Assembly: GCA_026419785.1 (NCBI GenBank)
Contig: JAODTK010005659.1
Coordinates: 1 to 64,000 of the forward strand
Direction: 5' to 3'
DNA length: 64,000 nucleotides
DNA from: Sclerodactyla briareus
Taxonomy: Eukaryota; Echinodermata; Holothuroidea; Dendrochirotida; Sclerodactylidae
A model generated the notes under the pieces. That model was not told the DNA's origin. It ran no database searches and saw only the letters and a list, made by a program, of their open reading frames with translations. The translations under genes were made by a program, and so were the position numbers. Every line of letters starts with the position of its first letter. Within the stretch, counting starts at the first letter, position 1. Of this stretch, positions 11,215-49,264 are shown piece by piece.

Positions 11215-11320
11215 ACTTACCCCATATTGCACTTTTGCCACCCCACCGCGCCTTGAACATCTGCAACTTTACGTAGTCAGGGTGGCAACCTATCGTCCTT
11301 CTTATTTTGCCAGTTGAAAG
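11215..11320 (+). repeat. Left terminal inverted repeat, family 1 copy A
   Basis: Begins ACTTACCCCATATTGCAC and runs to about TTATTTTGCCAG. Its reverse complement is at 17,015-17,123 with scattered indels. Confidence 0.75.
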
Positions 11321-11649
11321 TTTAAGTTCATGAGCATTTTGGCTAAGGAAATTTCCACGATTTTTCATCGCCGAAAAATAACCCATATGCTTTCAATCGA
11401 CATTCAGGATCTTGCGAGAGGCAATTTTTTCCGACGTCGTATATCAGGAATGTTTATCCTTAGCGGGTTGCGTGCTATTGGTTTGGATTTATTTCTCCGC
11501 TCGATCCGTTTTGCTAAGTCCATATTTAGGCCTAGGCTGCTCCTAGCACCCAAGGGGTGTGCATGCTTCACCCGTAGCCAACACACGTGGGTGTGTGGTC
11601 TCCTATTGTGTTAGGTTCAGTCAGGCTGGACTGTTGTCGGGTGCTTTCC

Positions 11650-11735
11650 CTAGCTGAGCCCCCCCCCCTCTCCCTCCCTCCCTCCTCCTTGGGTTTTTCC
11701 CTTCCCTCCCTGTCCTTCTCCCGGGGGGGTGTGTG
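11650..11735. repeat. Pyrimidine-rich tract with CCTTGGGTTTTTCCC core
   Basis: C-runs and CCCTCCCTCC repeats lead into CCTTGGGTTTTTCCC and then a G-run. The equivalent tract occurs at 44,288-44,370 in family 1 copy B and at 28,275-28,372 in family 2, at a similar place inside the left end. This is one of the few interior blocks shared by the two families. Confidence 0.65.
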
Positions 11736-11844
11736 TCTCTCCGAGCGCAGCGCTAGAATGTTAGCAAGACGGGTTGAGTGAGAGACGGGGGAATAGGGAA
11801 TGGGGATACTTTGTTCGTTTAATGGGTTGGAGTCTAAGTTTAAC

Positions 11845-12560
11845 TCGGTCTTCGTAAGTTACGTTACGGCCGATTATTGTATTTGTATAGTCTATACTGA
11901 CAATACACTACGAGTTATGACATTCGTTATCATGTCGGAAGTGATTCCTTCTTGTGATATTGCTTTTGTATACCGTTCGTTATCGGATGATGTTTGTATT
12001 TTGTATTATTCGTATCTGCAATACACTCGTTACTAGGAACATTTCGCTTCTCTGTCGGAAGTGATTCCTATTTGTGAATTGTTACCGGCGATGATTGTTT
12101 GTATAGTTTATACACAAACACCAGTATTATGACATATGCTTCAGGGGGCTCGGAATGATCCTATTGTGAGGACTATGTTATACCGTTCGTTATCGTCTGT
12201 TGTTATGTATTTTGTGTAATCTTATACTGCAATACTTTCGTATTATGAACATGACATTTAGCCGTTCGTTACGGCTGATTGTTATGTATTTTGTATAATC
12301 TTATAATGCAATACAGTATTATGACATATCACATTTCTTTCGGACGTATTCCTATTTGTGATATTGTTGTTGGTATATCGTTCGGGAGGAGGTATACTCC
12401 TGAAGGCTATTTTCCGTAGCTGACGGTATGTATTGTGTCTTAATCGATATGCATCAGCTGTATTATGACATATCAACATTTCATGTCGACGTGATTCCCA
12501 CCAACACCTATTGTGATATTGTTATTGTATATCGTTCGGGGGAGGTTTACTCCTGAAGGA
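11845..12560. repeat. AT-rich tandem array, ~130-140 bp units
   Basis: The units repeat CGTTCGTTATCG, GTATTTTGTATAATCTTATA, GCAATACA, TATTATGACATAT and GGAAGTGATTCCTA, separated by TTGTGATATTG. About five imperfect units are visible. A shorter version is at 44,505-44,885. Its composition contrasts sharply with the GC-rich remainder of the element. Confidence 0.7.
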
Positions 12561-12904
12561 TATTTTCAGTAGAGGGAATTTCCTCAGATAAGGGGAAAGG
12601 TGCGGCTACGGACCTTACGGCCATTGCTACCTGGGACAGAGGAAAACGCTGTGAGGCACCGCCTTGTCTATGAAGACTACATACGACGGCAGAGAAGAAG
12701 ACCCAGTGGGATGGCGGCGCTCGAAGAAAAAGGAGAAGAGGGGAGTTCCCGAGCTTGGCCCCTTCCGGGCCCGTGGGCAGGTGATCGTTAGCACCGTAAG
12801 TCACACAGGCATAGAGCTCTGGGCAGCCATGGACCCTAAAGCGGCGGGACGGGCCGATGGTTGCTGTCCGCACGTCGAGGGAGGCCGCTCTGTGGTTCCT
12901 TCCC

Positions 12905-13335
12905 TCGGCGCCGGAACCAGAACGGGGGGTGTCGTTACACCTCAAGATCGGTCCGGGTGTTCACGACAGTGAGGTCGGGCCGACAGGGGGGCGGGCCGAG
13001 GTGGCTCGTCTTTGCATGGTCCCGGCCCGACGGGTAAGGTCGGCGCCGGCACTGCCGGGTCCGAACGGGGTGAGGTGTCGTTACAAATAGGGGACGCGGG
13101 GGGTCCGACAGGAGAGGTCGGGGCCGGCCAGCGGGTCCGATCGAGGGTGGTTACACCTCGGGACGGCCCGGGGGGTCACGACAAGCTAGGTCGGGGCCGG
13201 CCCGCCAGGTCCGAACGGGGTGTCGTTACACCCGGGACGGCCCGGGGGTCCCGCCACGCAAGGTCGGGGCCGGCCCATCCGGAGGGGGTCCGATCGGGGT
13301 TTGTTAAACACGAAACCGACCGGAGGTGGGGGTCC
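12905..13335. repeat. GC-rich tandem array, ~76 bp units
   Basis: The repeated blocks are GGTCCGAACGGGGTGTCG, TTACACC, GGACGGCCCGGGGGTC and AAGGTCGGGGCCGGCC. Four to five imperfect units are visible. The equivalent array in copy B is at 44,885-45,180. Open frames here, such as 13,012-13,449, simply follow the repeat. Confidence 0.75.
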
Positions 13336-14740
13336 GACGAGGTTGCGGTCGGGGACCGAGTCCCTCGGCCGCGCATCCGGCGGGCGGGCTACGGCTCAGC
13401 ATCAGACCAGCGCAGGGGACCAATGGGTCCAGGATCTGTCAAAGCCTAAGGCACAGGCCTACATCGTCAAATCTCCCAGGAAGGTCTCTGCTCGGATTAG
13501 GATAGCGCTAGGTCGAGAAGTTTTACATTGGATAGCAAGCCGCGAGGATCCTCGGGGCGATGTTTCAAACCAGTTTCGAGGTTCTCACGAAGTTAGAGCG
13601 GCGAGTTCCGGGGCCCGTACGGCTTGACGATTCTGGACCTCCCGGCCTCTCGTAGGGGAGGTTAGAGCCGCGGAGGGCCCCTCAGGAACCTCAGCTGCTG
13701 GGTTCCTGGCAAGAGGGGGAGGAAGACGACAAGACGTTCCCCGATACCGAGATCTCTCGGGGGGTCTCTGGGGGTACGAGGCAGTCCGTCCAAAACAGCC
13801 GTAGCGCCGGGAAGTCTCTTGTCAGGCATTGACGACTCAAGTGGAGCATTGTGTTCTACACCCAGGAGCGCCGAGGCTATTACCCGCCGATAGTCCTCGG
13901 GGAGTCGGATGGACCGCATCCTTGTTAGGATGCCGTTGATCCCCGATCAACCTAGGAGCGAGACTTAGCGCTGACGGTCTCTTTTTTCGGGAGGGACGGG
14001 GTTAAGGTCCCGCATCGACACAGAGACTGCTCTCGGTCTATCCGACATAGTACTACGTTCGGGGACCAGACTCGCTACGCGTCGAATTTCAAGTGACTCT
14101 ATAGCGTTCGGAGTCCGGGGCCCTCATCTCCATGGCCAGCAGTCTGTAAGACTTGAGCGCGGGTGATTTAAGGCCGCACGGACAGGGCACAGGCCTGGGA
14201 CCAGCCCCGTGGCGGTAGAGTTGCATTTGTCAACATCCATCGCGGGCCGGGGCTCCTCGCGGGATATTTCGACGGAAGTGCGGACTCGCGGGATGATAAA
14301 TTAAGTCCTTAAGGGAGCCGACTTGGAAGGAGTCTTCCACCAAAGGTCTGACGTCAGGACCGTATAAGCCTCCTCGCAGACAGGGGAGCCGCTCGGGTCA
14401 GAGGCGGGGTTTTTGCTGCGGCCGCCAGGAGCGCCCACACTGCAAGAGTCGGATATCTTTAAAGAGAATCAGCGGGCTCGCGGACGGCCATCAGCTGGAA
14501 GACTACTAAGGTTCGCAGGCGAATGGACTCCTATCTAGCCTCCCCCCCCCCCCCCACCCGGGCGGAAGGCCACCGGGGCGGAGTTTCATGCTCCACTATT
14601 CTAGCGAACAAGTACAGCGCTGCCAGTCGGAGGACCGGGCCGTTATTCCGGTCAGGGTCGGGATTCCAAGCGTTACTGTTACGTGGGAGAGAATAGCAGT
14701 TGGCTACTGACATAGTAGCCAAGTCCGCCGACGTCTCGTT
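13336..14740. other. Non-array interior of family 1 element
   Basis: GC-rich sequence with a diverged counterpart in copy B (about 45,180-46,520). Shared blocks include GAAGTTTTACATTGGATAGC, GTACGGCTTGACGAT, GGCTATTACCCGCCGA and CGGTCAGGGTCGGG-like ends. The open frame at 45,659-46,051 in copy B is broken by indels in this copy. No known domain is recognised. Confidence 0.5.
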
Positions 14741-15335
14741 CTCTGATGAGTTAGGTATCGTCCGCTCTTCTCCTGGACCCTATTACGTCTTTGGCGCAGT
14801 TATCAACTTCACGTCGCACGAGCTTTCCCCGAAGCCAGCACGCTCGCTCGATCGAAACGACTGTCGTGAGGGACCAGCAGAACCATACGGGCCCGCTACG
14901 GAGCAACGGCTCCCCCCGAGGTTTAGACTGCTCTCTGCAGCATCTTGCCGTCTACTCCGCTGGACCACAATGGCTTACTTCGACGCTTATACCTTCACGG
15001 CGGACGCGTTTTCCCCGAAGCCAGCACGATCGCTCGATAGACCCGCCCTGTCCGCTGAGAAGAGACAGACCACGGCCCGTTTACGGAGCAGAAGGCTCAC
15101 CCCCGAGGTAGGCCGTGCTCTCTGCAGACCCTCTCTGCCGTCTACTCCGTGGACCCCATGACTTACTCCAAAGCAGTAATCACCTCACGTCGGACGCGTT
15201 TTCCTGAGTCAGCAGTTTCGGCTCGATCCGACCCGCCCCGTCGCTGAGATGATGAGGGACAGAACCGTCCGGCCCATTTAGGAGCACCGCTTTACCCGAG
15301 TAGCCGGTGCTCCCTACAGCCGGCCCTGTTACAGA
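14741..15335. repeat. Tandem array, three ~190-200 bp units
   Basis: Three successive units share TGGACCC, CTTCACGTCG(G)ACGCG, GAAGCCAGCACGCTCGCTCG, CCCGTTTACGGAGCA and GTGCTCTCTGCAG. Copy B carries the same three-unit array at 46,755-47,345. Confidence 0.75.
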
Positions 15336-15409
15336 CGGGGGCTGGCCGGCCCCCCGCTGGACCGCGGCGTTGCCACGGTTGGTGGGGCGTTATTCCGTGT
15401 CCTAGCCGG

Positions 15410-16230
15410 CGACTGTGTATCATAGAGCCTCCAGGAGGGGGTGGGTCTGCCCTCAGAGCCGTGAACCGCCTCTCCCGGCCTTCCCGAACCGGGGGTATGC
15501 CTCCGGAGCCGTGGGTAGGCTCTCCAGAGACGTGAACCGTCTCTGTCGGCCGTTTCGAGCCGTGTGCGACCTCGCAGACCCTCCGGGGCTGTGGTCGGAC
15601 TTCTCCGGCCTCCTGATTTAGATGGGCTATCCCGAGCGGATGGTCGCCTTCCCGGTTTTCCAGTTCGGGGTCGTGATCTATCAGCCGCCTGCCGGTCTAG
15701 TCCCATTCTCCGACTCTCCTGGGCCAGATCAACCCTCCCGAGCCGCGGTTCGAATTTCCCGTCTCTCTGGAGAGCCACGGATCGATGCTTCATGCCATCC
15801 GAAGCCAGCTCCCTGCGCAGTGGTTCGCTCATACCGGGATTGCCTAGCCGGAGGCCCGACTCTCCTGCCCTCCTGTGTGAGATCGGCATACAGAGCCGAG
15901 GATCGGACCCAGCCCGAATCACCAGGGCAGTGGTCAGACTTTCTGCCCTCCTGGGTGAGATCACCTCTACCGAGCCGAGGGATCGATGCCTGCCGAATCT
16001 CAGAGAAGTGGTCCAACTATTCCTGCCGATCCCTTGGGGCATAACGATCATGGATGGTTCACCCGGGCTCCATAGCCAGGTAGTCCGACTCTCCTGCTTC
16101 ATATGTGAGGAGGCCCTACCGCCGAGCAGCAGGATCGGGCCTCCCATGCAGACTCTTTATGCCTCCTGAGCCAGATCGACTCTACCGAGCCGTGGGTGGG
16201 CTCATACGTGATCCGACTCTTTAGGCCTTT
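15410..16230. repeat. Tandem array, ~75-85 bp units
   Basis: The units carry combinations of GTGGTCAGACTTTCTGCCC, CTCCTGGGTGAGATC and CTACCGAGCCGAGGGATCG. They are imperfect and partly rearranged. The counterpart in copy B is 47,400-48,290. The 272- and 201-codon frames on opposite strands here are by-products of the GC-rich repeat. Confidence 0.65.
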
Positions 16231-16865
16231 CCGGGCCAGATTGGTACTCCAAAGCCTGCGCGTCGCAGCCGCGACACCTACCCTTAGAATCGAACAGGTC
16301 AGCCTCTCTTCGAGGCGGTTGGGTGACCCCACGGCGGGCGGGGGTGGGTCACACCGTCAAGAAATTGACCTCTGCACAGTCGGAATTCTATCCACGGTTG
16401 AAGGCGTTAGGTGGGGTGTTGGTGCGGTCACGGAAACGTACGGGTGAAAAAAAAGTTTCGTTCGTTAACGATTCAAACTCTTCTTCCCATGTAGTCAGCT
16501 TTTCTCCCGGCATCGAAGGCTTTCTAATTAGTGGGATAGAGAGCCTCGCAAGTCCGTATATCTCTTGAGCAGGTTGCGCTGGTTACAATGTGACTACCCG
16601 TTGCATCCGCGAGCTGGGAGTCGGCCCTCCTCGTGCTCCCGAGCTACGCTTCTTCGCGAGTCGGTTATCGAGCGTATGTGGGGTTTACCACCACCGACGT
16701 CGTTCATGATGAACTTCTCCAACACAGACTGGCAGCCGAGCACGGGGGCTTGCATCTGCATATCTACAAACAGACCAACCAACCCTGTCGTGACGGCACA
16801 GACCGCACCAGTGGCCCTGTCTAGTCATGTGCAAAGTGCATATGGGTAAGTTGAGTAAGTTGAAT

Positions 16866-17168
16866 GATTCACAAAACTTACTGGTGTGATCTGTGAACTA
16901 CGAAATACTTACCCCATATTGGCACGTACCCACCCTACCGTCCCACTTCCGGGCCATCAAGGGGCGTCCTCCTTCGTCGATCGCGGGCATGCGCCCCCAT
17001 CCTGGACGCCTTCTGCCTAGAAAACAGAAAGGACGTAGGGTTGGCCAGCCCGGAATACTGTAAAAGTTGCAAGATGGTCAATGGAGCGGGGTGGGGTTGC
17101 AAAGTGCAATTGGGGTGGTAAGTATTCGTAGTTTCACAGATTCACAAAACAGAAGTTTGTGGAAATCT
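16866..17168. repeat. Right-hand module of family 1 copy A, with its own inverted repeats
   Basis: The left arm starts GATTCACAAAACTTACTGG and runs through GAATCTGTGAACTACGAA-like sequence to ACTTACCCCATATTGG. The right arm, from GGTAAGTATTCGTAGTTTC to 17,168, is its reverse complement. The middle has GGACGCC, TGCCTAGAAAA and AAGGACG. Equivalent modules end all four large elements in this window. It could be a separate MITE that always lies there, but its inner right edge is also the long right TIR of the whole element. Confidence 0.65.
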
Positions 17169-21835: not shown

Positions 21836-22403
21836 TAGTTGAAAAAGGGTCAGGAATGACAAAAATAAAAATCCTCTTGCAAAATAAATCAAGACCTGTT
21901 CTTGAATGCATTTAACATGGAACCCTCTTTAGCCCGAACAACATCCTTGTCATAATAGGGCTATTCCACTTCATTAAATCACTCTCTGGAGCAGGATATT
22001 TCCGAATGTCCACTCCTAACAGCGTTCACCACGAAGTTGAGACAATTGCCCCTATTGGTGGTAACTTTGGAAACTCAAAGACGCAGTGGAAGGAAAGGCC
22101 CTCGAAACCATGAACAATTTTTAAAAACCTGAATCAAATCCACCCCGAATCATCTCAGTTCCATTGAAGTTAAACCGAGAAAACCGAAACGCCATAATCC
22201 TCTCCGTAAGGTACATCTCTAGAGATTTATATTACTCCTCGTGGCCCTCCGCTGAACGTTTTTCAATTACCTGAAACAATTGAAAAACAGTTGACAATCG
22301 AAGACCATTTGGCGATATATATCAAGATCCTTTTGGACAATTGCAACCTCATCGTTCGAAGCAACCTCCGCGCTACAACTTGGAAATCTATCTCCTTTAT
22401 TCC
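21836..22403 (-). mobile_element. Non-LTR retrotransposon, RT C-terminal part, interrupted on its 5' side
   Basis: On the minus strand, the frame next to the family 2 insertion reads EVASNDEVAIVQKDLD followed by CQLFFN, the usual sequence just after the YADD box in Jockey-like RTs. Further along, in shifted frames, come blocks resembling ERIMAF-type, RG.LIQVFK-type and 'KWNS' segments, then NRLDLFCKR-like sequence. These match the C-terminal ends of such polyproteins. The part upstream in coding order lies at 25,227-25,440 across the inserted element. Stops and frameshifts show a dead copy. Confidence 0.65.
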
Positions 22404-23279
22404 CCTTGACCCCACATGGACTATGCAAAACCCCCCCCATTGCCCACGTCGACTTTCTGGACATTACACAAATGCGGGTTGGCTACGCGTATGCCGCGTT
22501 AACATCAGGCAAGAGCTCGTTTTCGTTTCTTGATTCTGACTGTCAGCTGTTGTTGTGTTTCCGGCGGCCAGGCTTGGGACATGCTGATCGCGGGGCGAGC
22601 CCTGTCGGCCCGGTGACCGGCGCGCCTGGACTCCGCCCTCCGGAGGTGAACGTGCCCGCGGAGCGGGTTTCGGCTGCCCTCCGCTGGTCTCGGCGCAGCG
22701 GACGTTCTGGCGAGGTCTTCCCGAGGGTTACCTCCGGGCAGTGATCTCCGGTTGAGCACCGCGGAGGTTATGGCTCTAAACGCCTGATGTTGATTAGTCC
22801 CCAGGGCCTTCAGCTCAACCACGGCCCTCCACGCGCAAGCGGCGCAAGCAGCGAACCTAGAGATGCCCCTTAACCAGCAGTTACCTGCCCGGTGGAGGAG
22901 GAGACTGATGCACCTCCCGGTAGCATGGGTCGGTGGGGTACTGAGACCTCCCGGGTCATGTTCCCCCTCCTCCCGAGAGCGTCGACATCGAGCCTCATGA
23001 CCCACCGAGAGCGCGCTCGTTTCAGGCTAACTCTGCGCTGGGCACGCGGGTCCAGGCCCTACGTCGCTAATCAACCTTGGGGGCTTTGCGGTGGCCGGAG
23101 CGGTGTTGGGGTGGAGTTCTTGGTAGGATTAGGCCTCCGGCCGCCCCTGCCGCCGCACGGGGGGGGGCGGCTTCCACCGTTTGGGCTGGTCGGCGGGGAC
23201 GGTGGCCCCCCCGATGAAAACCAACTTTTCCCTCCTGCGGCTCTGCAACGCCTCCATGCTCCACCGCTCCGGTGCGCGG

Positions 23280-24660
23280 GCTCATGGGCTTTGTGACTCC
23301 GGCTTCGCGCTTCCGATTGTGGCTCTAGCCACGCTTGGCCCCGCGCGGCTCCGGGCTACAGGCTCCGGTTTTTGTGGCCCCGGGGCTTTCATGGCTCCGG
23401 CTTTTGTGGCCCGCCGCTCTGGAAATCCTGGCACATCGGGGTACTGGACCTCCGTATTTTGTGTCCCCGCGACTCCAGGGCTTTTTTTGTGGCCCCGCGG
23501 CTTCGTTGGTTCCGCTACTTCCGGGCTTTCTGCCATCCGGGCTTCGTGGCTCCGTGGCTCCGGGCTTTATGACTCCCGGCCCCGCAGCTCCGGGCCCCCC
23601 GGCTCAGCTCCGCTGCTCCGCGGCTCCGGCCCCTCCGGAGCTTGTCGCTTCAGGCTATGAGGTCCAATCAGGGTGCAGTTGCTGGGCCTGCGGGGGAAGC
23701 TTCGGTCTCCGCGCTCCAGCCTCAGCGGTTCCGGCCTTCTGCGGTTCTGGCCTTGGACCTTGTGGCCCAGGCTTTGTGGCCCCATGTGCCGCAGCTGCGG
23801 GACCCGCAGCTCGGGCATCCGACCTTTGTCGCCCCCGGGCTATGTGGCATCGGTGCCGCAGCTGCGGGCTCCGCATGCTTCCGGCCTCCCCGCTTTCGGC
23901 CTCTGCGGTTTTGACCTTCCGGGCCCATGCTTCTTTTGTCTCAGGTGGCCGCCCGGCTGCGGCTCCGCGGCTCCCGGCTCCCGGCTAAGCTCCGTGCTCC
24001 TCCGTGTTCGCGGGCCTCCGCCTTTCCGGTTACGCGGGTCCCCGGCCCCGCTTTACGCGGTCCCGGCTCCGCCTTTCCGGTTCCTCTCGGTTCCGGCCTC
24101 CGCTTCTCGGTTTTCCGCGGCTCCGCCTTTGCGGATTTCCGCGGCTCCAGCCTACGCGGCTCCGGCATATGCGGTTCCGCCTTTCTGTTTCCCACGTTCA
24201 GCTCCCCCGCCTTCCAACTTTTTAATGCGGCCTCCGGCCTCTGCGGTTCCGCGGCTCCGAACCAAATCTGCGGCTCCGCTCCAATGGCGGGAAAAAACCA
24301 ACCACCCACTTATTACGCCGGTTTCCGGCCTCCAGCTTCCGGTTTTCCGTGGCTCCAGCCTTTGGCGGTTTCACACGGCTCCGGCCTATGCGTGTCCACG
24401 TCTCCGGTCTCTGCGGTTTCGCGGTTTCCGGCCTTTGCTGTTCCGCCTCCGCCTTCCCTGTTCCGCGGCCCCCGGTCCCCCCCCCCTTTTCCCGCCCGCG
24501 GTTCCGCCCTCCGTCTTTTCGCCCCGCGGTTCTGGCTCCCGGCGGCCCCGGCCGTCCGATTTCCCGCGTTTTCCGGCCTAGGCGATTCCGACCTACGCGG
24601 TTCCAGCTTCCGACCTTCAGGTCCCGCGGCTCCGCATCTCAGCTCGGTGACTCCAGGTCC
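23280..24660. repeat. GCGGCTCCGG-type GC-rich array, family 2 short copy
   Basis: Degenerate repeats of roughly 11-24 bp built on GTGGCTCCGGG and GCGGTTCCGGCCT variants. The first half (to about 23,930) favours GTGGCTCCGGGCTTT. The second half favours GCGGCTCCGGCCTTTGCGG. The matching array in the full copy is 32,440-33,770. Open frames of 217-302 codons run through it in several registers and give repetitive Gly/Ser/Pro/Arg sequence, which argues against coding. Confidence 0.7.
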
Positions 24661-24923
24661 CGGACAGGAGCGCCTCTCCCGTCGTAGATAGTGCTCTCAC
24701 TGTTCTTTTTCCGCGCCTCGATACGACCAAGCTGACTCTGGGGCAGGTCCACCCAAAACACCTGTGGTTTTGCTTGGTTGGGGGCTGCCCCTGCAGTCAC
24801 TGAACCCTCCCATTACGGTCGGCACTCCATCAAACTAACCAGCGTGATGGCACTTACCCGCCTCCGGGTTCCCTGGCTAATCTGGTGCATAGTCCAATGT
24901 GGGGTAAGTTGAAATAAATGAGA

Positions 24924-25226
24924 TGAATTCACCAAAACAGAACAGGTTTGGGAATCTGTGAATTTATGAATACTTACCCCACCATGGGACTTTCCCGCCC
25001 TCCTTCCTCCCCCTCGCTTCGGGCATCCTGCGTCACCCTTCGGGCTCCCGAGGCCCTCTCCGGTTGACGCCTACCTGGAAAAAATTGAAGGGCGATGGGT
25101 TTCCACGACCCATTTGTGTAATTGCCAAAGCTCGACGTGGCAAGGGGGTGGGTGCATAGTCTATGTGGGGTAAGTATTCATAATCTCACCGCTCCCAACC
25201 TGGTCTGTTTTGGTCTTCACCAAATC
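24924..25226. repeat. Right-hand module of family 2 short copy
   Basis: The left arm starts GAATTCACCAAAACAGAACA and runs to ATGAATACTTACCCCACC. The right arm (from GGGGTAAGTATTCATAA to CTTCACCAAATC) is its reverse complement. The centre has GCGTCACCCTTCGGG, GACGCCTACCTGGAAAA and AAGGGCGATGGGTT, homologous to the family 1 modules. Confidence 0.7.
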
Positions 25227-25440
25227 TTCTAATGTCATTAATACCCAGAGAAGTAAGGCCAAGAACCGATCCTTGGGAACAACCACTGGTGACTTTTTTG
25301 TTGCACGAGGCGAATCTCATTGATGGCAACTCGTTGTTCAGTGGAACCACGAGGGGGAAACCTCGCAAGACTAGACCTTTCCGTCGTCCATACGCACTGC
25401 CTGTGAAAGTCGGCAGCCCACCCATCGCACCCATGCACCA
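25227..25440 (-). mobile_element. Non-LTR retrotransposon, RT core fragment
   Basis: The minus-strand frame reads KKVTSGCSQGSVLG then LGINDI, a degenerate version of the reverse-transcriptase motif VTSGVPQGSVLGP...YINDI. The frame is lost exactly where the family 2 module begins. The continuation of this RT lies at 21,836-22,403 on the same strand, so these are two parts of one retrotransposon split by the 2.8 kb insertion. Confidence 0.75.
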
Positions 25441-27615: not shown

Positions 27616-27814
27616 GCGCGCTCCTCCGCGTTCCTTAATTTTGATTAACCCGCGCGATTCACAGCGCTCCTAAAAAATACCTACGTGCATTGCTTTCCTT
27701 GTATCCCACGGGAGACAACGGACGCGCCCCCGGGAAACCCGCGGGGCGCTCAGTACTGCCACGTACTGTCGCACCATACATCCAACATCGTAATCAGAAT
27801 CTTCTCATTTATTC
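27616..27814. other. Junction sequence before family 2 full copy
   Basis: GC-rich start, then AT-rich. The last bases, CTTCTCATTTATTC, recur next to the left end of the short copy and, inverted, at 24,907-24,923. The repeat therefore probably extends about 15 bp left of ACTTACCCC. Confidence 0.4.
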
Positions 27815-28274
27815 ACTTACCCCACATGGACTATGCACCCACACCCCCTTGCCACGTCGAGCTTCTGGCATTAACACAAATGCGGGTTGGCCACCCCACC
27901 TCGTCCGTCTCTTTTTGCCAGGCTAATTGTCTAGTTCCGTCGGTTTTTGGCTCAAGATTTTGCCCAACAATCGTTCCTAGTAGCATTTTTTCTGGCTTTC
28001 TATCATCTTTTTTTTTCTTCCTTGCTTCTTACTTTGGCTGGAATTTGTAGCGTTTTTCGTGACCTTCGATTCAAGTATCTCTCTCTTCACTTAACGTGAC
28101 AGTTTGAATGGTTTTTAGTCTCTCTCTAAACGCCGTTCCCTCCTGCGCTGGGGGCGTTACCTAGTTTTGCCTACCTAGCTGTAGTGTTTTGCGTAACTGC
28201 AGACTAGCCTAACACGAACACGGTACCGGCCTATCGCCTGGACCGCGCGGCTTCTTTGGTCTTTCGGGTTTCAT

Positions 28275-28372
28275 TCCGAGGGCCTACCCCTCTACCTCCC
28301 TCCCCGTCCCCCCTGCCCTGCCCCTTGGGTTCCCGTTCCCTTCCCTTCCCCGGGGTTTTGGGGACCTTTTAG
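28275..28372. repeat. Pyrimidine-rich tract, family 2
   Basis: CTACCTCCCTCCCC...CCTTGGGTTCCCGTTCCC, then GGGGTTTTGGGG. It is homologous in layout and core to 11,650-11,735 and 44,288-44,370. Confidence 0.6.
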
Positions 28373-32439: not shown

Positions 32440-33770
32440 TACATTGCTTTGTGACTCGGGCTTCGCGTCGCCGGAACTCGTGGCTCCGAGAGTCCAGCTC
32501 TTGGCCGCGCGGCTCCGGCTACATTGCTCCGGTTTTTGTAGGCCCCGGGCTTCATGGCTACCGGGCTTTGTGCTCCTCTACTCTGGAAATCCGGGCCTGC
32601 ATCGGGTACCGGACCTCCGTATTTTGGGGCCCCGCGACCAGGCTTTGTTGGCCCGCGGCTTCGTGTTCCGCGACTCCGGGCTTTCTGCCTCCTGGCTTCG
32701 TGGCTCCGCGGCTCAGGGCTTTATGAACTCGGCTCTGCAGCCTCCGGGCTCCGTGGCTCCGGGCTTCATGACTCCGGCCCCGCAGCTCCGGGCCCCGCGC
32801 TTCATGCCTCCGCGGCTCCGGCCTCCGGACCTGTCCTTTTCAGGCTATGGGTCCCAGGTGCCGGTGCTGCGAGGAAGCTTCGGTCTCCCCGCTGCTCCAA
32901 GCCTCAGCGGTTTCCGTCCTTCTGGGTTCTGGCCTCTGGACCTGTGGCCCAGGCTTGTGGCCTCATGTGCCGCAGCTGCGGGACCCGCAGCTCTCAGGCC
33001 TCCGGTCCCTTTGTCGCCTTGTCGTCCGCCGGCTATGTGGCATCAGGTCCGCATCTGCGGGCTCCGCAGCTCCGGCCCTCCACGCTTTCGGCCATCCGCC
33101 GCGGTTTTGGCCCTCCGGACTTCGGGCCCAGGCTCTTTTTGTCCCTCAGTGCCGCAGCTGCGGGCCTCCGCGTCCCTGGACTCTGCGTCTAACCTCCGTG
33201 GCTTCGCGGTTTCGGGCCGCCGCTTTCCGGTTTACGCGGTCCGGCCTCCGCTTTTACGCGGCCCCGGCCTCCTCCTTTTTCGGTTCCCGCGGCTCCGGCC
33301 TTTGCGGTTCCGGGGCTCTGTCCGGCCTACACGGGGGCTCCGGCCTACGCGGTTTCCCGCCGTTTTCTGGGGTCCCACGGTTCCCGCCTCCGCTCCCCGG
33401 GTTTTCTGCGGCTCCGGCCTCTGCGGTCCGCGGCTTCCGGCCTCTGGGTTACTCGGTTCTGGCCTCCCCGCCTTCCCGGTTTTCCGCGGCCCCAGCCTTT
33501 GCGGTTCCGCGGCTCGGGCTTATGCGGTTCCGGGCTCCGGTCTCTGCGGTTTCGCGGTTCCGCCTTTGCGGATCTCCCGACCATCCGGCTTTCCGGTCCC
33601 CGCGGCCCTGGCCTCCACCTTTTCCTCCCGCCCTCGGTTCCGCGGCCTCTCGTTTCGGTTCCCGCGGTTCTGGCTTTTCCGAGCGCCCCGGTCCTCTCCG
33701 ATTTTCCGGTTTCTCGGCCTAGGCGATTCCCGAACCTACGGGTTTTCCCGCGGATCCGCATCTGGCAAAC
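32440..33770. repeat. GCGGCTCCGG-type GC-rich array, family 2 full copy
   Basis: Same degenerate repeat and two-part organisation as 23,280-24,660. The 443-codon frame at 32,444-33,775 is a by-product. It translates to monotonous R/G/S/P/L repeats and is not in the same register in the other copy. Confidence 0.7.
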
Positions 33771-34021
33771 GGTGACCCACAGTCCCGACAGGAGCGCCTT
33801 CCGTCGTAGATGCCTTTTCTCTTCCGCGCCTTGATACGACCCAGCTGACTCTGGGGCAGTCACCACACCACTGTTTCTTGGTCGGGGCTCCCACATGTCA
33901 CTGAACCCTTCATTACGGTCGGCCACCCATCATCCTACCAGGTGATGGCCCTCACTCACCGCCTCCGGGTTCCCTTTGCTAGTCTGGTGCATAGTCAATG
34001 TGGATTAAGTTTATATGAGAT

Positions 34022-34315
34022 GATTCACCAAAAAGAAACCGGTTGGGAAATCTGTGAATTTCTGCATGATATACCCCACCATGGGACGTTCCCTGCCCTT
34101 CCTTCCCCGCTTCCGCGCCATCACTGCGTCACCACCCTTCGGGCTCCGAGCCCTCTCCCGGGTTGATGCCTAGCCTGGAAAAAAGTGAAGGTCGATGGGT
34201 GCCAACCCGCATTTGTGTAATTGCCAAAGGCTCGACGTGGCAGGGGGTGGGTGGCATAGTCCATGTGGGTAAGTATTCATAAATTCACAATTCCCAAACC
34301 TGTTCTGTTTTGTGT
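34022..34315. repeat. Right-hand module of family 2 full copy
   Basis: Starts GATTCACCAAAAAGAAACCG and ends with the inverse arm AATTCCCAAACCTGTTCTGT. The centre carries GCGTCACCACCCTTCGGG, TTGATGCCTAGCCTGGAAAA and GAAGGTCGATGGGT, as in the other modules. Confidence 0.7.
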
Positions 34316-35700
34316 CTGCTCTGAAACACGTGCAAGCGGTAGCGGCTCATGCCCGCCAGAGCGGTATGGTATGCCTCAACGTCTGATCCACGTGTGCAGG
34401 CACACTAGCAACACTCCACATCACGTAACAAGCCTTTCCATTGGCTCGATTCATAAATACGGTCGTCTGTGTCCCGAGAGACCGAGACGACCATAATTTC
34501 TTCGGACACCACAGAACTTTAAAGTTGTTGCCCGACGGACAACCATTTTCCTCCTTCACAAATATTTTTGTATGATAATGCTCCCTTCTAAAACATTGAT
34601 CTCCCACCTGATTAGTCTTTTGTTTGACATTTTCACAAATCACAAAATTCATTCTAAATTCGTCACCTTTTCACATCGTCACAATTTTCTTTACGGGATG
34701 AACGTAACGGCTAGCGCGAAGGCGCTGGCCGGCTCGCTGCACGCCCATATCACAACCGGATGCAGTGAATTTTAACGGTGCTTTGTATTTGATACACTGT
34801 TGCTGATAGGTATTGTTGACATCGATCATGGCATGCACACGATGTACCGATGTTTACAGTACATCGTCCACTAGCCGGCTGGGAAAACAACTGTCACTAC
34901 ATGATCTATGCACGACATATGGGCATTATTTTTCGATTTTACTGAAAATTTCCTAACGTTGATATTTCGCAGAATGGTACATTTTTAGTTATAATACATA
35001 CATATTATACCCTGTGTTTCTAGTACAAATCACTGAAAAATACGTTAAAAACATCATTCTGAATTCTTCCAAAAATATAAAATGATCTAACCGAAGACAA
35101 AATGGGTTCATGTCACTGCAATTCACCTAAGTTTGCAGCACATCTTTGCGTTCCGTCTTCAGACGGTGGATTTATTTTTTAGGCTAACGGGGTCCCCTGT
35201 ATCAAAATGATAGCAAATTCAAACAGTTTAGGCTTTGTTCTGTCCTGTGAACAGAAAATAGGCCTAGATAGTTTGAGGCTTCCCTATAACCCCATGATCT
35301 GATATTTTTCCTACAAATCAAATCATTCCCCAAAGAATAATTTATGGATCATAATAAAAATTGCAGATATCAAAATGTGCTTTCGCGGGATGGGAGAACT
35401 TTTTCCGTGTTACCGAATTTGGAAGTCCCCAAGGCCCAAACAATACTTTTATGTGGGGGCCTATGTAGGACTATGCATGTCAAGTTTGTAATAGATCTCA
35501 ATAAGAACAGCAGTACGCACCAGTGTGAACACATGTATTTTGGTCAATCTATTTTATCATTACATACAAGGCAAGGATTCTGACAACCAATTGCTAGTTC
35601 TCTTACGTATCAAATTGTGCTACATTACATGTAGCTCAGACTGTCAAAGGCCAATAACGTTGTTATCAAATCGTCCCTTTACTTCGAAAGTTTTTTGTGA
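34316..35700. other. No recognised feature
   Basis: Mostly AT-rich unique-looking sequence without motif-bearing frames or clear repeats. Confidence 0.4.
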
Positions 35701-35701
35701 G

Positions 35702-39153: not shown

Positions 39154-39169
39154 GGAGGCAAAACAAGCA

Positions 39170-43770: not shown

Positions 43771-44504
43771 ACAAAGCTAGAACACCGATTTTTAGCTCAA
43801 AAACCAGCATGTGGTTGAGCTATTGAATCTATTTCCCTTACTTACTCAACTTACCCCATATTGCACTTTGCACCCCCCCGCGCCATTGAACATCTGGCAA
43901 CTGTTACAGTAGTCCTGGCTGGCAACCCTACGTCCTTGCTTATTGGCCAGTTTGAACGTTTAAGTTCATAATCATCTTGGATAAGAATTTCATCGTTTTT
44001 ATCGCCGAAAATCACCATCTGCTTTCATCGACATTCAGAATCTTCTAGGAGGCATTCTTCTTCCGACGTGTTCGATAGATAGGTTTATCATGAAGAGTTG
44101 CGTGATATGGTGTGGATTTATTTACCGGCTCGTCCCGTGTTTGCGTAAGTCCATATTTAGCCGAGCGGCTCAGAGCACAATAGGGTTGTGCATGGCCTTC
44201 CCCGTAGGCCGACCACGCGGGTGTGTTGGGCTCATAGTGTGTTAGGTCAGTAGGCGCTGGATGTTGTCCGGGTGCTTTACCTAGCTGAGCCCCCCCCCAC
44301 CCTCCTCTCCCTCCCTCCATCCACCTCCTTGGGTTTTTTCCCCTTCCCGCCCTGTCCCCTTTCTACCGGGGGGTGGTGTGTCTCTCCGCGCGCGGCGCTA
44401 GGGAATGTTACGCAAGCGGGTGAGAGCGGGTGTTTTGTTTTTTTTTTGGGGTAATGGCGGGATACTTTGTTCGTTAACTTAACTTGGAGTCTAAGTTAAC
44501 ACGT

Positions 44505-44885
44505 CTTATCGTGAGTTCGTTAACGGCCGATTACGTGTATTGTATAGTCTTATAGCAATACACTACGGTTAGGACATTTCGCATATACCTGTCGGAAGTG
44601 ATTCCTTCCTGTGATATTGATTTTGCTATAACGTTCGTTATCGGCTGATGGGTTTGTATTCTTGTATAATTCTCTTGACTACTGCAATACACACTCGTGA
44701 CTATGACCATTTCGCTTATCACTCGGAAGTGATTCACCAGTTGTGATATTGCTACCGGCGATGATTGCACAGGCTGGTATATTTTTTTTTCTTTTTTTTT
44801 GTCTTATACAGTATTACACCAGTATTATGACATGTCGCAGATCAGGCGGAAATGCTTCCTACTGGGATATCACTTGGTATACAGT
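44505..44885. repeat. AT-rich tandem array, family 1 copy B
   Basis: Short counterpart of 11,845-12,560, with GGAAGTGATTCCT and TGTGATATTG recurring about three times. A T-run interrupts it near 44,781-44,800. Confidence 0.65.
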
Positions 44886-45180
44886 TAGTTATCGGGCCCG
44901 AATGGGATGTCGTTACACCTCGGGCCGGGCCGGAGTCCGACAGGGAGGTCGGGGCCTGGCCCAGCCGGGTCGATCGAGGGGTGGTTGTTAACCTCGTGGA
45001 CGGACCGGGGGTCCCGAAAAGCTAGGTCGGGGCCGGCACAGCAGGTCCGAAACGGGGGTGTCGTTACACTCGGGAGGCCCGGGGTAGTCCCGAAAAGCAA
45101 GGTCGGGGCCGGCCGGCGGTCCGATCGGGGTGTGGTTCCACATCGAAACGGCCCCGGAGGTCCCGACGGAGTGCGTTAGG
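44885..45180. repeat. GC-rich ~76 bp tandem array, family 1 copy B
   Basis: Units with GGTCGGGGCCGGC, GGGTGTCGTTACAC and GGCCCGGGG. Direct counterpart of 12,905-13,335. Confidence 0.7.
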
Positions 45181-46754
45181 GGGAACCGGTCCCGCGGCCG
45201 CGGATCCGGCGGGCCGGTACGGCTCAGGCATCAGACCAGCGCCAGGGAACAGGGATCCAGGGATCCAGGGGACAGGGATCGCTCAAGCCCTTACGGCACA
45301 GACTACATCGTCAACATATCCCCAGGAAGGTCTTGCTAGGATCGATAGCGGTAGGAAGAGAAGTTTTACATTGGATAGCCCAGCCACGAGCCCAGGGGCG
45401 ATGTTTCAACTGTTTCGCCGGTTTTCAGACAGTTTAGAGCTGGCGACGTCCTGGGACGTACGGCTTGACGATCCTGGACCCTCCCGGCCTCCGCGTAGGG
45501 GAGGTTAGGCCGACGGCGGCCGCAGGAACTTCAGCTGTTGGGTTCCGGGCAAGAGGGGAGGAAGACGACAAGGACGCTCCCGATACCGAGATCTCTGGGT
45601 GTCTTCCGGGGGTACGAGGCAGTCTGTCCGAAAACAGCCGTAGCGCCGGAGTTCTCTCTTGGCAGGCATGCGGACTCAAGTGGAGCAGGTGTTCTACACC
45701 AAGGAGCGGCGAGGCTATTACCCGCCGAAAGTCCTCGGGGGTCGGATGGACTGCATCCTTGTTAGTGTGCCATTGATCCCCGATCAAACTAGAGCGAGAC
45801 TTAGCGCTGGCGGTCGCTTTTGTCCGAGGGACGGTGTAAGGTCCCGCATCGCCAGGACTGTTCTCGGTCCTCTCCGAAATAGTTACTACGTTCGGGACAG
45901 CCTTCGCTACGCTGTCGCTATTCAAGTGACTCTATCGCGTGCGTTGGTCCGGTGGCCCTCCTCATCCCATGGCCAGTCTGTCAGATCGAGCGAGGGTGGC
46001 TCAAGGCCGCACGGACAGCGCATAGGGCCTGGTGACCAGCCCGTTCGATAAGAGTTGCCTTCAGTCAAACATCATCGAGGGCCAGGGCCTCCTCGCAGGA
46101 TATTTCGAAGAAGTGCGCTAGCGGGACGAATAAATTAAGTCCTGAAGGGGCCGACGTGGAAGGAGTCTTCCCCAAGGTCTAGTCAGGACCGTAAAGCCTC
46201 CTCACCTAGACGAGGGAGCCGCTCGGGTCAGCGTCGGGGGTGCTGCGGCCGCCAGGAGCACCACACCTGCAAGAGTAGGATATCTGTAAAGAGAAATCAG
46301 CGGCTAGCGGAGGCCACTGATGGTGGGAGGACTCGAGGTTCGCAGGCGAAGGACTCTATCTAGCCTACCCCCCCCCCGGGCGGAAGGCCCCGGGGCGGAG
46401 TTTCATGCTCACTATCTAGCGACAGTACAAGCCGCTGCCCGGTGCCAGTCGAGGACCAGGGCCGTTATTCCGGTCGGGTCGGGCTGCCAAGCGTAATGCT
46501 TCCGTGGGAAAAACTAGCAGTTGGCTACCTTCACTCGGGTTCTTACCAGGCCCCACTCTCGCTCACCTCCGTAGCGGAGACTCTAGAGGGCTCGAGATAC
46601 AAGACAGCTTACTGAAGATAGGTGGGGCTCAAACGACTGGAACGGCCGATATAACGGAGGAGTTTGGTGGCGGGACTACGTTGCTTGTAGGCCTACGACC
46701 TAGTAGCCAGGTCTCGCCCCCTCTCCCCTTTCCCTCTCCCTCCTAGCCGACGTT

Positions 46755-47345
46755 CGTTCTCTGCTGAGGTAGGTCTCGTCCGCTCTTATCCGTGGACCCT
46801 ATTATTCTTTGGCGCAGTTATCACCTTCACGTCGCACGCGCTTTCCGAGCCGCAAGTTCGCTTGACGCGCCCGACCTGTACGTGAGGGACAGAACCAAGG
46901 CCCGTTTACGGAGCAAACCGGATCACCCCGAGTAGCCGTGCTCTCTGCAGCCGTTCTCGGCCGTCTTATCCGTGGACCCAATGGCTTACTTAGACGCAGT
47001 CATCACCTTCACGTCGGACGCGCGGTCCCACGGACGCCAGCACGATCTCTCGATCGACCCGCCCGGTCCGCTGAGAGACAGAACCACGGCCAGTTTATGG
47101 AGCAGCCGGCTCACCCCGGGTAGCGTGCTCTCTGCAGACGCCTGTGCCGTCTACTCCGTGGACCCCATGACTTACTCCAAGCAGTCATCACCTTCACGTC
47201 GGACGCTTTTTCCTGAAGTCAGCACTTTCGCTCGACCGACCCGCACCGTTCGCTGAGAGACGAACCGTGGCCATTTACGGAGCAAACCGGCCTTACCGAG
47301 GTAGCCGTGCTCCCTACAGCCGCGCCCTGTTATAGACCGGGCTAG
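46755..47345. repeat. Three ~190-200 bp tandem units, family 1 copy B
   Basis: Repeats CCGTGGACCC, CACCTTCACGTCGGACGC, GTTTACGGAGCAAACCGG and GTGCTCTCTGCAG. Same unit number as copy A. Confidence 0.7.
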
Positions 47346-47399
47346 GCCGGACCACGCTGACAGCGGAGTGCCACGGAGGTGGGGCGTTCCGTGTTCATA

Positions 47400-48290
47400 C
47401 CGGGACTTGTCTCCTAGAGACTCCAGAGCGGGTCTGCCCTTCAGAGGCGTGAACCGCCTCTCCGGCCATTCCCGAAACCGGGTTCTGCTCTTCGGAACCG
47501 GTACGGCTCTCCAGAGCAGTGAGCCGTCTCTGCGGCCGTCTCGAGCCGTGTGGCGACCTCTTCCGACCCTCGGGGGCTGTGGTCGGACTTATCCGGCCCT
47601 CCTGATTTAGATGGGCTCTCCCGAGCCCATGGTCGGCCTTCCCGGTTTCCAGTACGGGGTTGACTATATCAGCCCGCCTGCGCCAGACGGGCTCTCCGGC
47701 CCGAGGGTTAGCCCCTACCGACCCCTACGAGGCCTTCGTCCCATCTCCGACTCTCACATGAGCCAGATAAACTCTCCAGAGACGCGGTTCCGATTACCCG
47801 TCTCTCTGGAGCCGCGGATCGACGCTTCAAGCCATCTGAAGCAAGTCCCGTGCGAAGTGGTGCGCTAGCCAGGGCTTGCATAGCGGAGCCCGACTCTTCC
47901 TGCCCTCCTGTGTGGAGATCGGCCATACAGAGACGAGGATCGGGACCCGCCGACTCACCCAGAGCAGTGTCAGGACTCTTCACTGCCCTCCCTGGGTGAG
48001 ATCGCTCTACCGAGCCGAGGAACGAGCCTGCCGACTCCAGAGAGTGGTCACCACTATTCTGCGGCTCCATTGGGCATCGATCCCTGGGATTGGTTCACCC
48101 GGAGCTTCCATAGCCCGAGTCCGACTTCCCTGCCTCCTATGTGTGAGGTGGCCTACCGAGCAGGGATCAGGGCTGCGACTCTTTCTGCCATCCGGCGCAG
48201 ATCGATCTCCCGAGCGTGGTGGGTCACCGTGTCAGGACGATTTAGGCCCTCCCGGGCCAGATTGGTACTCCAAAGCCTGCGTGCAGCCGC
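47400..48290. repeat. ~75-85 bp tandem array, family 1 copy B
   Basis: Counterpart of 15,410-16,230, with GATTTAGATGGGCTCTCCCG, CTGCCCTCC(T) and GAGATCG words repeated. The 279-codon frame starting at 47,876 is not kept in copy A. Confidence 0.6.
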
Positions 48291-48946
48291 CGCAACTACC
48301 CTTGACATTCAAGCCAGGTCAGCTCTTCGAGGTGGTGGGTCGACCCCACGGCGGTCCGTGGGTCGGGTTCACACGTCAGAGTCTTACCTCTGCACCGTCG
48401 GAATTCTATCCACGGGTGAGCGTACAGGTGTGGGTGTCCGGTGCGGTCACGGCACTGGTACTGGTGAAAGAGAGACAGTTGTTCGTTAACGGTGAATCAA
48501 ATTCTTCTTCCCATGTAGCAGCTTTTCTTTCCGGAATCAAGGCTTTCTCAATCCGTGGGATAGAGAGCCTTGCAAGGCCGTATATCTCTGGCAGGTTCGC
48601 TGGGTTCACAATGTGCCACTACCCCGTTGCACGCGAGCCTGGAGAGTCGGCCCTCTCGTTCCCCCGAGCTCCGCTTCTTCGCGAGCGGTATGCGAGCGTA
48701 TGCTGTGGGGTTTAACACACGACGTTCGTTTCATGCGGTCTTCTCCAACACAGCCTCGGCCTAGCTGGCTACGAGTGGCTTGGAGATCGTCTAGCATTGA
48801 GACGCAAGACCCGATACAAGAACCCTGTTTACGTGCCGGATCACGGACACCCCCGCCCACACAGTGGCCTGTGTCACGTGTGGCGTGCACTCCCCACAGT
48901 GCACTAATACAGGGCCTGGTATTACGTGCCAGGTCAACGTGATATA

Positions 48947-49255
48947 GATTCACAAATCACTTATCTGTGTTGTGAAATGTCTGTGAACTACGAATACTTA
49001 CCCAATATTGGACGTACCCACCCTCCGTCCCCACTTCCGGGCCAAAGGGGCGCCTCCTTCGTCGGATCGCGGGCCTTCGCCCCTCACTCCCTTGGACGCC
49101 TTGCCTAGAAAAAATAAGAAGGACGATAGGGTTGCCAGCCCCGCCGACTAATGTAAAACGTTGCCAGATTGTTCAAGGGCGCGGGGTGGGGTCGCAAAGT
49201 GCAAGATGGGGAAGTTCGTAGTCACAGATTCACAACCAGTAAGTTTTGTGAAATC
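48947..49255. repeat. Right-hand module of family 1 copy B
   Basis: Left arm GATTCACAAATCACTTATCT...CTGTGAACTACGAATACTTA. The right arm, ending GTAAGTTTTGTGAAATC, is its inverse. The middle carries GGACGCCTTGCCTAGAAAA and AAGGACGATAGGGTTG. Confidence 0.65.
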
Positions 49256-49264
49256 TGCATGTCA

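What the first reader, a model, noticed from the sequence alone, without database searches (positions are those of the whole stretch)
11215..49255. Two families of large TIR elements with array-filled, transposase-free interiors
Four elements (11,215-17,168; 43,849-49,255; 22,404-25,226; 27,815-34,315) have ~105-115 bp terminal inverted repeats starting ACTTACCCCA. The inner parts of the TIRs, GGTTGGC-type, CGTCCTTC/CGACCTTC and TTTT..CCAGG-like blocks, are similar between families although the outer 20-60 bp differ. Both families carry a pyrimidine tract with CCTTGGGTTT(T)CCC, several unrelated GC-rich tandem arrays and a shared right-hand module. I recognise no transposase in any. Known MITEs are usually much smaller and do not carry several arrays, so this could be an undescribed class of non-autonomous DNA transposon.
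Basis: partly seen in the sequence, partly recalled or inferred. Interest (0 to 1): 0.75.

Follow-up and report, generated by a model that had tools for sequence, protein, structure and literature searches.

The report
Gene-less DIRS-type retrotransposons with repeat arrays
The four elements are most likely not DNA transposons but DIRS-type "circle-forming" retrotransposons that have kept the ends and the internal circle template, appear to have lost the enzyme genes, and are filled with GC-rich repeats.

Summary
The four elements and their inverted repeats are real (4 of 4), but ACTTACCCCA is not their outer edge: about 20 bp more follow on the left and a different 40-51 bp on the right. About 220-340 bp before the right end lies a block that reads, in one piece, as the reverse complement of "right end joined to left end" (4 of 4; scores 74-117, shuffled maxima 30-38; F1b weak). 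That is the internal complementary region with circle junction, the hallmark of DIRS1-like tyrosine-recombinase retrotransposons. Extension sizes, AAT termini and the lack of a variable target-site duplication fit too. So "DNA transposon" is not supported; "non-autonomous" probably is: a frameshift-tolerant search with recalled fish DIRS proteins found no convincing RT, RNase H, methyltransferase or recombinase, whereas simulated RT, RNase H and recombinase genes at about 30% identity with read-like errors were found in 10-12 of 12 runs. Caveat: the window reads like unpolished long reads, so open frames and the 74-82% copy identity are unreliable. Ten open-access searches showed me no description of gene-less, array-filled elements of the ITR/ICR type. 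Host and genome could not be reached.

The parts
11195..17168 (+). Element F1a, core to core (cores 5,969 bp apart)
   Evidence: End alignments and core search
11195..11199 (+). F1a left core AATCT
11208..11313 (+). F1a left inverted terminal repeat
   Evidence: Pairs with 17,013-17,132 at 76.6%, score 106, shuffled maximum 28
11640..11720 (+). F1a pyrimidine tract with CCTTGGGTTTTTCCC, similar in F1b and F2b
13097..13276 (+). F1a 73-bp tandem array
14796..15249 (+). F1a 186-bp tandem array
15865..16013 (+). F1a 78-bp tandem array
16829..16939 (+). F1a internal complementary region: reverse complement of right end joined to left end
   Evidence: Score 110, shuffled maximum 30 of 200, wrong order 70, same strand 76
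17013..17132 (-). F1a right inverted terminal repeat
17124..17168 (+). F1a right extension ending in AATCT
43826..49256 (+). Element F1b, core to core (cores 5,426 bp apart)
43844..43944 (+). F1b left inverted terminal repeat
   Evidence: Pairs with 49,113-49,222 at 83.9%, score 136, shuffled maximum 32
44260..44350 (+). F1b pyrimidine tract
44946..45124 (+). F1b 76-bp tandem array
46814..47323 (+). F1b 182-bp tandem array
48933..49031 (+). F1b internal complementary region (left arm weak)
   Evidence: Score 74, shuffled maximum 33 of 200, wrong-order junction 71, same strand 44; right-extension test 0 of 200 shuffles, left-extension test 153 of 200
49113..49222 (-). F1b right inverted terminal repeat
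49217..49256 (+). F1b right extension ending in AATCT
22385..25227 (+). Element F2a, core to core (cores 2,838 bp apart); internal-deletion form of F2b type
22405..22482 (+). F2a left inverted terminal repeat, cut short by the internal deletion
   Evidence: Pairs with 25,103-25,174 at 79.5%, score 86, shuffled maximum 32; deletion
23361..24359 (+). F2a short GC-rich arrays (15, 21, 23 and 24 bp) scattered over this stretch
24886..25004 (+). F2a internal complementary region
   Evidence: Score 117, shuffled maximum 32 of 200, wrong order 78, same strand 42; arms adjoin at 24,930/24,931
25103..25174 (-). F2a right inverted terminal repeat (part paired within the element; 25,074-25,175 pairs with the F2b left repeat)
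25176..25227 (+). F2a right extension ending in AATCT
27798..34317 (+). Element F2b, core to core (cores 6,515 bp apart)
27807..27925 (+). F2b left inverted terminal repeat
   Evidence: Pairs with 34,171-34,284 at 83.2%, score 149, shuffled maximum 30
28270..28360 (+). F2b pyrimidine tract with CCTTGGGTTCCC
29344..30474 (+). F2b 20-21-bp tandem arrays (GAGCCGACCCACGGCTCGGTA type)
32702..33571 (+). F2b GC-rich arrays (15, 23-24, 45, 78 bp) scattered over this stretch
33986..34087 (+). F2b internal complementary region
   Evidence: Score 91, shuffled maximum 38 of 200, wrong order 55, same strand 45; arms adjoin at 34,026/34,027
34171..34284 (-). F2b right inverted terminal repeat
34275..34317 (+). 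F2b right extension (core reads TGTCT)

Best explanation
These are DIRS-type (tyrosine-recombinase retrotransposon) elements with ITR/ICR ends that appear to have lost, or never had, the reverse transcriptase, RNase H, methyltransferase and recombinase genes, and whose interior is filled by GC-rich tandem arrays. Proposed working: the element is transcribed left to right (inferred); a relative elsewhere in the genome supplies reverse transcriptase and recombinase in trans (inferred); the internal complementary region, which carries the complement of the joined right and left ends, serves as template or splint to restore both ends and close a cDNA circle (inferred from the published DIRS-1 model: PMC5633606 passages, PMC3266345 passages and section 10); the recombinase then inserts the circle at an AATC(T)-like site without making a target-site duplication (inferred; the constant core and the lack of further duplication are observed). 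Shown here: the anatomy. Supported but not proved: the absence of the genes.
For: Anatomy: in 4 of 4 elements a single alignment runs through rc(right end + AATC + left end) in the block before the right terminus, scores 110, 74, 117 and 91 for F1a, F1b, F2a and F2b against maxima of 30, 33, 32 and 38 in 200 shuffles each. With the end extensions alone, the right extension finds the block of its own element with 0 of 200 shuffles reaching it in 4 of 4 (scores 43-54; the same query unreversed 15-28); the 21-bp left extension with 18, 153, 0 and 1 of 200. The arms adjoin to the base in F2a and F2b and overlap by 4 nt in F1a. Termini: AATCT at the left in 4 of 4 and at the right in 3 of 4 (TGTCT in F2b); no flank direct repeat beyond the core longer than 2-3 nt, as random pairs give. 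Published DIRS1-like elements agree: right extension 46-49 in Lottia, 48 in Aplysia, 50 in Daphnia; left and right ICR of 38-46 and 67-89 in these; LgDIRS2 has start/end/junction AAT/AAT/ATT; a block of at least 10 nt shared by both ITRs and both ICRs (PMC3266345 section 10 with Table 3, read whole), here ACTTACCCCA. DIRS are described as lacking TSDs (PMC8969392, passage). [quoted passage not shown] Gene absence: frameshift-tolerant searches with sensitivity controls; no coding periodicity in 11 element stretches (control in 48); no Pfam family for the 5 element ORFs scanned.
Against: F1b's junction match is only 3 points better than a wrong-order junction (74 against 71) and its left arm alone is at chance; the wrong-order scores of the others are 70, 78 and 55, and F1a's same-strand control is 76 against 110. 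The shared 10-nt block is exact in 7 of 16 expected places and has one mismatch in an eighth. The left termini read AATCT before AT or TC, while three of four ICRs read AATC or AATTC before AT and only F1b reads AATCTAT, so the core is not settled to the base. The protein queries were recalled fish DIRS fragments, so a very divergent gene set would be missed (at about 25% identity simulated RNase H was found in only 7-8 of 12 runs); the methyltransferase had no control and gag was not searched. One of 32 searches and one of 24 slightly exceeded 20 shuffles, both RNase H in F2a; with 300 shuffles 11 and 5 reached it, and F2b gave 231 and 289 of 300. Narrowed afterwards to about 540 bp of F2a, 0 of 300 reached it (homologous stretch of F2b: 32 and 67 of 300); that narrowing was post hoc. 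No autonomous partner and no further copies could be looked for in the host genome.
Confidence: 0.82

Rival explanations
1. They are ordinary autonomous DIRS1-like retrotransposons whose genes are unreadable because the window is unpolished long-read sequence; the 'arrays' are partly coding repeats.
For: Three of four lengths (5.4, 6.0 and 6.5 kb) lie in or near the range of annotated DIRS1-like elements, 3,974-6,283 bp. The error load would break every long frame: indel events exceed mismatches in 7 of 8 repeat pairs, and in simulations only indel-rich noise gave ratios above 1. A weak RNase H-like trace in F2a.
Against: The frameshift-tolerant search found nothing convincing (1 of 32 tests, 1 of 24, not upheld element-wide or in F2b), although simulated RT, RH and YR genes at about 30% identity with read-like noise were detected in 10-12 of 12 runs. 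No 3-base periodicity in 11 stretches (largest excess 0.028, in the 21-bp array) against 0.088 in noisy simulated genes with GC-rich codons.
Confidence: 0.12
2. A class of non-autonomous DNA transposon with long TIRs.
For: Inverted terminal repeats in 4 of 4 and no Pfam family in the 5 element ORFs scanned.
Against: The unequal extensions beyond the repeats and the internal complement of the joined ends are not explained; no variable target-site duplication.
Confidence: 0.04
3. Penelope-like or Helentron-type elements with inverted or asymmetric terminal repeats.
For: Penelope copies can have inverted pseudo-LTRs and short end extensions (PMC8969392 passage); Helentron derivatives carry arrays (recalled).
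Against: Neither is known to me to have an internal block complementary to both ends in junction order, found in 4 of 4 here.
Confidence: 0.01
4. Assembly artefact: the paired ends come from mis-joined or duplicated reads.
For: The window does contain an apparent assembly duplication at 35,851-42,464: 78-86% identity over its first 1 kb and 99.5-100% in each 200-column block of the rest.
Against: Four elements with different flanks, two families and the same junction-ordered anatomy are not expected from a mis-join.
Confidence: 0.01

Closest known systems
DIRS1-like retrotransposons of molluscs and Daphnia (LgDIRS1-3, AcaDIRS1-2, DpuDIRS3), PMC3266345 section 10
   Same: ITRs, right extension of about 46-50 bp, left and right ICR with an AAT/ATT circular junction; for the group: ICRs at the 3' end, a short block shared by both ITRs and both ICRs, no TSD
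   Different: The survey found its elements through RT, MT and YR profiles; here no RT, RH, MT or YR was found and the interior is GC-rich tandem arrays
DIRS-1 of Dictyostelium discoideum (PMC5633606 passages)
   Same: ITR/ICR plan and the proposed circle-forming mechanism
   Different: Three ORFs; longer ITRs (conserved part 304 bp for DIRS1-2 in Table 3 of PMC3266345)
SIRE, the truncated non-autonomous version of the trypanosome VIPER element (PMC6681497, passage)
   Same: A short derivative that keeps end sequences of a YR retrotransposon
   Different: Split-direct-repeat type, roughly 0.4 kb by the lengths given there, no ITR/ICR plan
TOC1 of Chlamydomonas (recalled; the one search for it found no paper)
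   Same: Recalled as a non-coding element linked to DIRS-type ends
   Different: Not tested
LARDs and other long non-autonomous LTR derivatives (recalled)
   Same: Large, gene-less derivative with retained ends
   Different: Direct LTRs and integrase-type TSDs (recalled)

Membership tests
DIRS1-like retrotransposon (ITR/ICR type) | Inverted terminal repeats | tested here: met
   4 of 4 within the element, 83-125 columns, 77-84% identity, scores 86-149 against shuffled maxima of 28-32
DIRS1-like retrotransposon (ITR/ICR type) | Right extension complementary to the right ICR | tested here: met
   4 of 4, 0 of 200 shuffles reach it
[quoted passage not shown]
   4 of 4 as one alignment; weak in F1b, where a wrong-order junction scores 71 against 74 and the left arm alone is at chance
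DIRS1-like retrotransposon (ITR/ICR type) | Same short sequence at both termini and in the circle junction | tested here: met
   AATCT left 4 of 4, right 3 of 4; the ICRs, reversed, read AATC (F1a, F2b), AATCT (F1b) or AATTC (F2a)
[quoted passage not shown]
   ACTTACCCCA exact in 7 of 16 expected places, one more with one mismatch; the others differ by more
DIRS1-like retrotransposon (ITR/ICR type) | No target-site duplication | tested here: met
   Longest flank repeat beyond the core 2-3 nt, as in random pairs; empty sites could not be compared
DIRS1-like retrotransposon (ITR/ICR type) | Genes for gag, RT/RNase H, methyltransferase and tyrosine recombinase | tested here: not met
   controls in 25 and 48 for RT, RH and YR only; no control for the methyltransferase, gag not searched. 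Hence not filed as a complete DIRS1-like element but as a presumed non-autonomous derivative that works like one
TIR DNA transposon | Inverted repeats at the very ends | tested here: not met
   Unequal extensions outside the repeats
TIR DNA transposon | Variable target-site duplication of fixed length | tested here: not met
TIR DNA transposon | Transposase or an autonomous partner with the same ends | not testable with these tools
   The host genome search did not complete

The most novel reading that the evidence does not exclude
Large, gene-less, array-filled DIRS-type elements form at least two recently active families in this genome: the ITR, ICR and end extensions alone are enough for mobilisation in trans, and the cycle of circle formation and recombination breeds and spreads GC-rich tandem arrays, making DIRS derivatives a source of minisatellites.
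Probability: 0.45. Interest if true: 0.6.

Novelty: new variant of a known kind. Interest (0 to 1): 0.45.

Why it matters
The role of the DIRS internal complementary region rests on a model that PMC5633606 (passage) calls experimentally not fully proven. Elements that keep only ITR, ICR and extensions, in two families, would show which sequences are needed in cis and give natural test constructs.

Tried and rejected
Rejected: ACTTACCCCA as the outer end. Rejected: reading the 74-82% copy identity as age, and open frames as genes, because indel events exceed mismatches (93/53, 94/64, 150/110, 275/160, 316/182, 174/83 and 67/62 in seven pairs; 43/45, not exceeding, in the eighth), while simulated natural divergence of 10-25% gave ratios of 0.27-0.53.

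The first protein search used too lenient penalties (shuffled queries scored about as high as the real ones). There RT in F1a (129 against a maximum of 107 in 10 shuffles) and RH in F2a (98 against 88) exceeded the shuffles, 2 of 32 searches. I dropped these settings for stricter ones, under which RT in F1a did not exceed (40 against 47; 64 against 72) and RH in F2a did so slightly (see evidence against).

Led nowhere: Rfam (0 matches); tRNA scan (0); ITR patterns as exact matches in viral contigs (0) and in prokaryote genomes (0), collections in which a eukaryotic element was not expected; related loci for the recalled RT in viral contigs (5 pattern matches, none confirmed); Pfam on 7 window ORFs, 5 in elements and 2 outside (0 families; the 55-ORF list was otherwise not scanned). 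Paper searches for non-autonomous DIRS elements; searches returned nothing, searches listed 20 of 36 and 20 of 968 papers. None of the titles and abstract openings listed, nor the passages I read, describes a non-autonomous element of the ITR/ICR type; of PMC8498967, 12 of 22 places were shown.
Full report
The starting observation. The finding lists four elements with inverted repeats starting ACTTACCCCA. Extracting the stated ends, comparing the window with itself and pairing the two ends of each element confirms the repeats in 4 of 4: F1a 11,208-11,313 with 17,013-17,132 (76.6%), F1b 43,844-43,944 with 49,113-49,222 (83.9%), F2a 22,405-22,482 with 25,103-25,174 (79.5%) and F2b 27,807-27,925 with 34,171-34,284 (83.2%), scores 86-149 against shuffled maxima of 28-32. 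The two F1 copies align in three long pieces covering most of their length, and F2a aligns with the right two-fifths of F2b plus its left end. F2a lacks what corresponds to about 27,894-31,625 of F2b, so it is an internal-deletion form. GC is 56-66% in 2-kb windows wholly inside the elements and 38-47% in those wholly outside. Tandem arrays with periods of 15-186 bp sit in all four.

Sequence quality. An apparent tandem duplication at 35,851-39,153 and 39,155-42,464 is 78-86% identical over its first 1 kb and 99.5-100% in each block of the remaining 2.3 kb. I read this as an assembly joint between noisy long reads. In the element pairs, the duplication and one background pair (3-1,709 with 8,577-10,204) indel events outnumber mismatches by 1.4-2.1 to 1; two smaller background pairs give 1.08 and 0.96. 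Simulated natural divergence with the same aligner gave 0.27-0.53, and indel-rich noise gave 1.3-1.6. The copies may therefore be far more alike than the 74-82% measured, and reading frames in this window mean little. The mismatch rate in F1 and F2 (about 7-8%) is only a little above that in the noisy part of the duplication (about 6%; computed), which suggests that the copies are young; this is inference.

Where the elements really end. Aligning the ends shows that similarity runs past ACTTACCCCA: about 20 bp on the left, and 40-51 bp of a different sequence on the right. Outside, all four left ends carry AATCT and three of four right ends do (TGTCT in F2b). Beyond this core no direct repeat longer than 2-3 nt is found, as in random pairs of places. 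A constant core at every site is not a target-site duplication of the usual kind.

The internal block. Before the right repeat lies an inverted block. With the extensions alone as queries, so that the shared repeat cannot help, the right extension matches the block of its own element in 4 of 4, with 0 of 200 shuffles as good; the unreversed query scores 15-28 against 43-54. The shorter left extension does so clearly in F2a (0 of 200) and F2b (1 of 200), weakly in F1a (18 of 200) and not in F1b (153 of 200). In F2a and F2b the two matches adjoin to the base; in F1a they overlap by 4 nt. Taking the predicted circle junction (right end, AATC, left end) as one query gives one contiguous match per element: 16,829-16,939 (score 110), 48,933-49,031 (74), 24,886-25,004 (117) and 33,986-34,087 (91), against maxima of 30, 33, 32 and 38 in 200 shuffles. 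The wrong-order junction scores 70, 71, 78 and 55, because the repeat itself is part of it, and the same-strand control 76, 44, 42 and 45. F1b is therefore the weak case, and F1a's same-strand score is high for a reason that I did not trace.

What this is. PMC3266345 (section 10 with Table 3 read whole; other passages) describes DIRS1-like elements by ITRs, a right extension, and two ICRs that overlap at a circular junction, with no target-site duplication. In its table the mollusc and Daphnia elements have right extensions of 46-50 bp and ICRs of 38-46 and 67-89 bp (other groups differ); LgDIRS2 has AAT, AAT and ATT as start, end and junction. It also notes a block of at least 10 nt common to both ITRs and both ICRs. 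The present elements have right extensions of 40-51 bp with part or all of the core, ICR matches of 99-119 bp in all and AAT at seven of eight ends; ACTTACCCCA plays the part of the common block, though it is exact in only 7 of 16 expected places and has one mismatch in an eighth. PMC8969392 (passage) gives the same definition. The likeness in sizes to mollusc and Daphnia elements is suggestive for the host, no more.

Genes. I wrote a frameshift-tolerant local alignment and used recalled fragments of fish DIRS proteins; Pfam recognises the RT fragment (E 2.6e-29), the RNase H fragment and, below its cut-off, the recombinase fragment as phage integrase. Of 32 searches (4 proteins, 4 elements, 2 strands) one exceeded its 20 shuffles, RNase H in F2a by 51 to 49; of 24 (3 proteins) at a softer frameshift penalty again only that one did, 64 to 58. 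With 300 shuffles 11 and 5 reached it, and F2b gave 231 and 289 of 300. When I narrowed the search to about 540 bp of F2a around the match, 0 of 300 reached it, against 32 and 67 of 300 for the homologous 600 bp of F2b; since the region was chosen after seeing the match I give this little weight, but a worn RNase H remnant in F2 is not excluded. As controls, RT, RNase H and YR genes simulated at about 30% identity with read-like noise were found in 11-12, 10-11 and 12 of 12 runs; at about 25% in 10-11, 7-8 and 11-12 of 12 (a gentler RT simulation gave 12 of 12 down to 30%). No control was run for the methyltransferase, and gag was not searched. G+C autocorrelation shows no coding period in 11 element stretches, where noisy simulated genes with GC-rich third positions show it. 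I conclude that the four are probably non-autonomous, with the reservation that a very divergent gene set would be missed.

How it would work. In the DIRS-1 model (PMC5633606, passages) the transcript lacks parts of the ends, the ICR restores them during cDNA synthesis, the cDNA is closed to a circle and the recombinase inserts it. The present elements keep the parts that the model needs in cis, and would borrow the enzymes. The pyrimidine tract about 430-560 bp from the left end, seen in F1a, F1b and F2b but lost with the deletion in F2a, could be a further cis signal; this is a guess. The arrays differ between families apart from a GAGCCGTGGGT-like unit in opposite orientation and look like filler.

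Novelty. A truncated non-autonomous derivative of a YR retrotransposon is known for VIPER (SIRE; PMC6681497, passage). For the ITR/ICR type I saw none in ten searches of the open-access library, two of which listed only part of what they found. As a word start, 'autonomous' does not occur in the main text of PMC3266345 and PMC2685390, and in PMC9210276 it occurs once, in a reference. Subscription papers and Repbase itself could not be searched, so described cases may exist. I rate it a new variant of a known kind. All four elements lie in the same orientation within 38 kb.

Noticed in passing
35851-42464: Apparent 3.3-kb tandem duplication, noisy over the first 1 kb and nearly identical over the rest; probably an assembly joint.
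   Followed up: yes
3-2019 and 8577-10568: Two direct repeats of about 2 kb at about 80% identity, which at this noise level may be nearly identical; perhaps long terminal repeats of another element.
   Followed up: no
18441-18801: A 360-bp stretch that matches its own reverse complement at 68%, perhaps a MITE.
   Followed up: no
59840-60689: Diverged tandem repeat with spacings of about 150, 315 and 460 bp.
   Followed up: no
22565-22877: Weak RNase H-like frameshifted match in F2a (5-11 of 300 shuffles as good over the element; 0 of 300 in a post hoc narrowed region); not upheld in F2b.
   Followed up: partly
15476-16208 and 29323-30079: The F2b 21-bp array unit recurs in reverse orientation in F1a, so the two families share an array motif.
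   Followed up: partly
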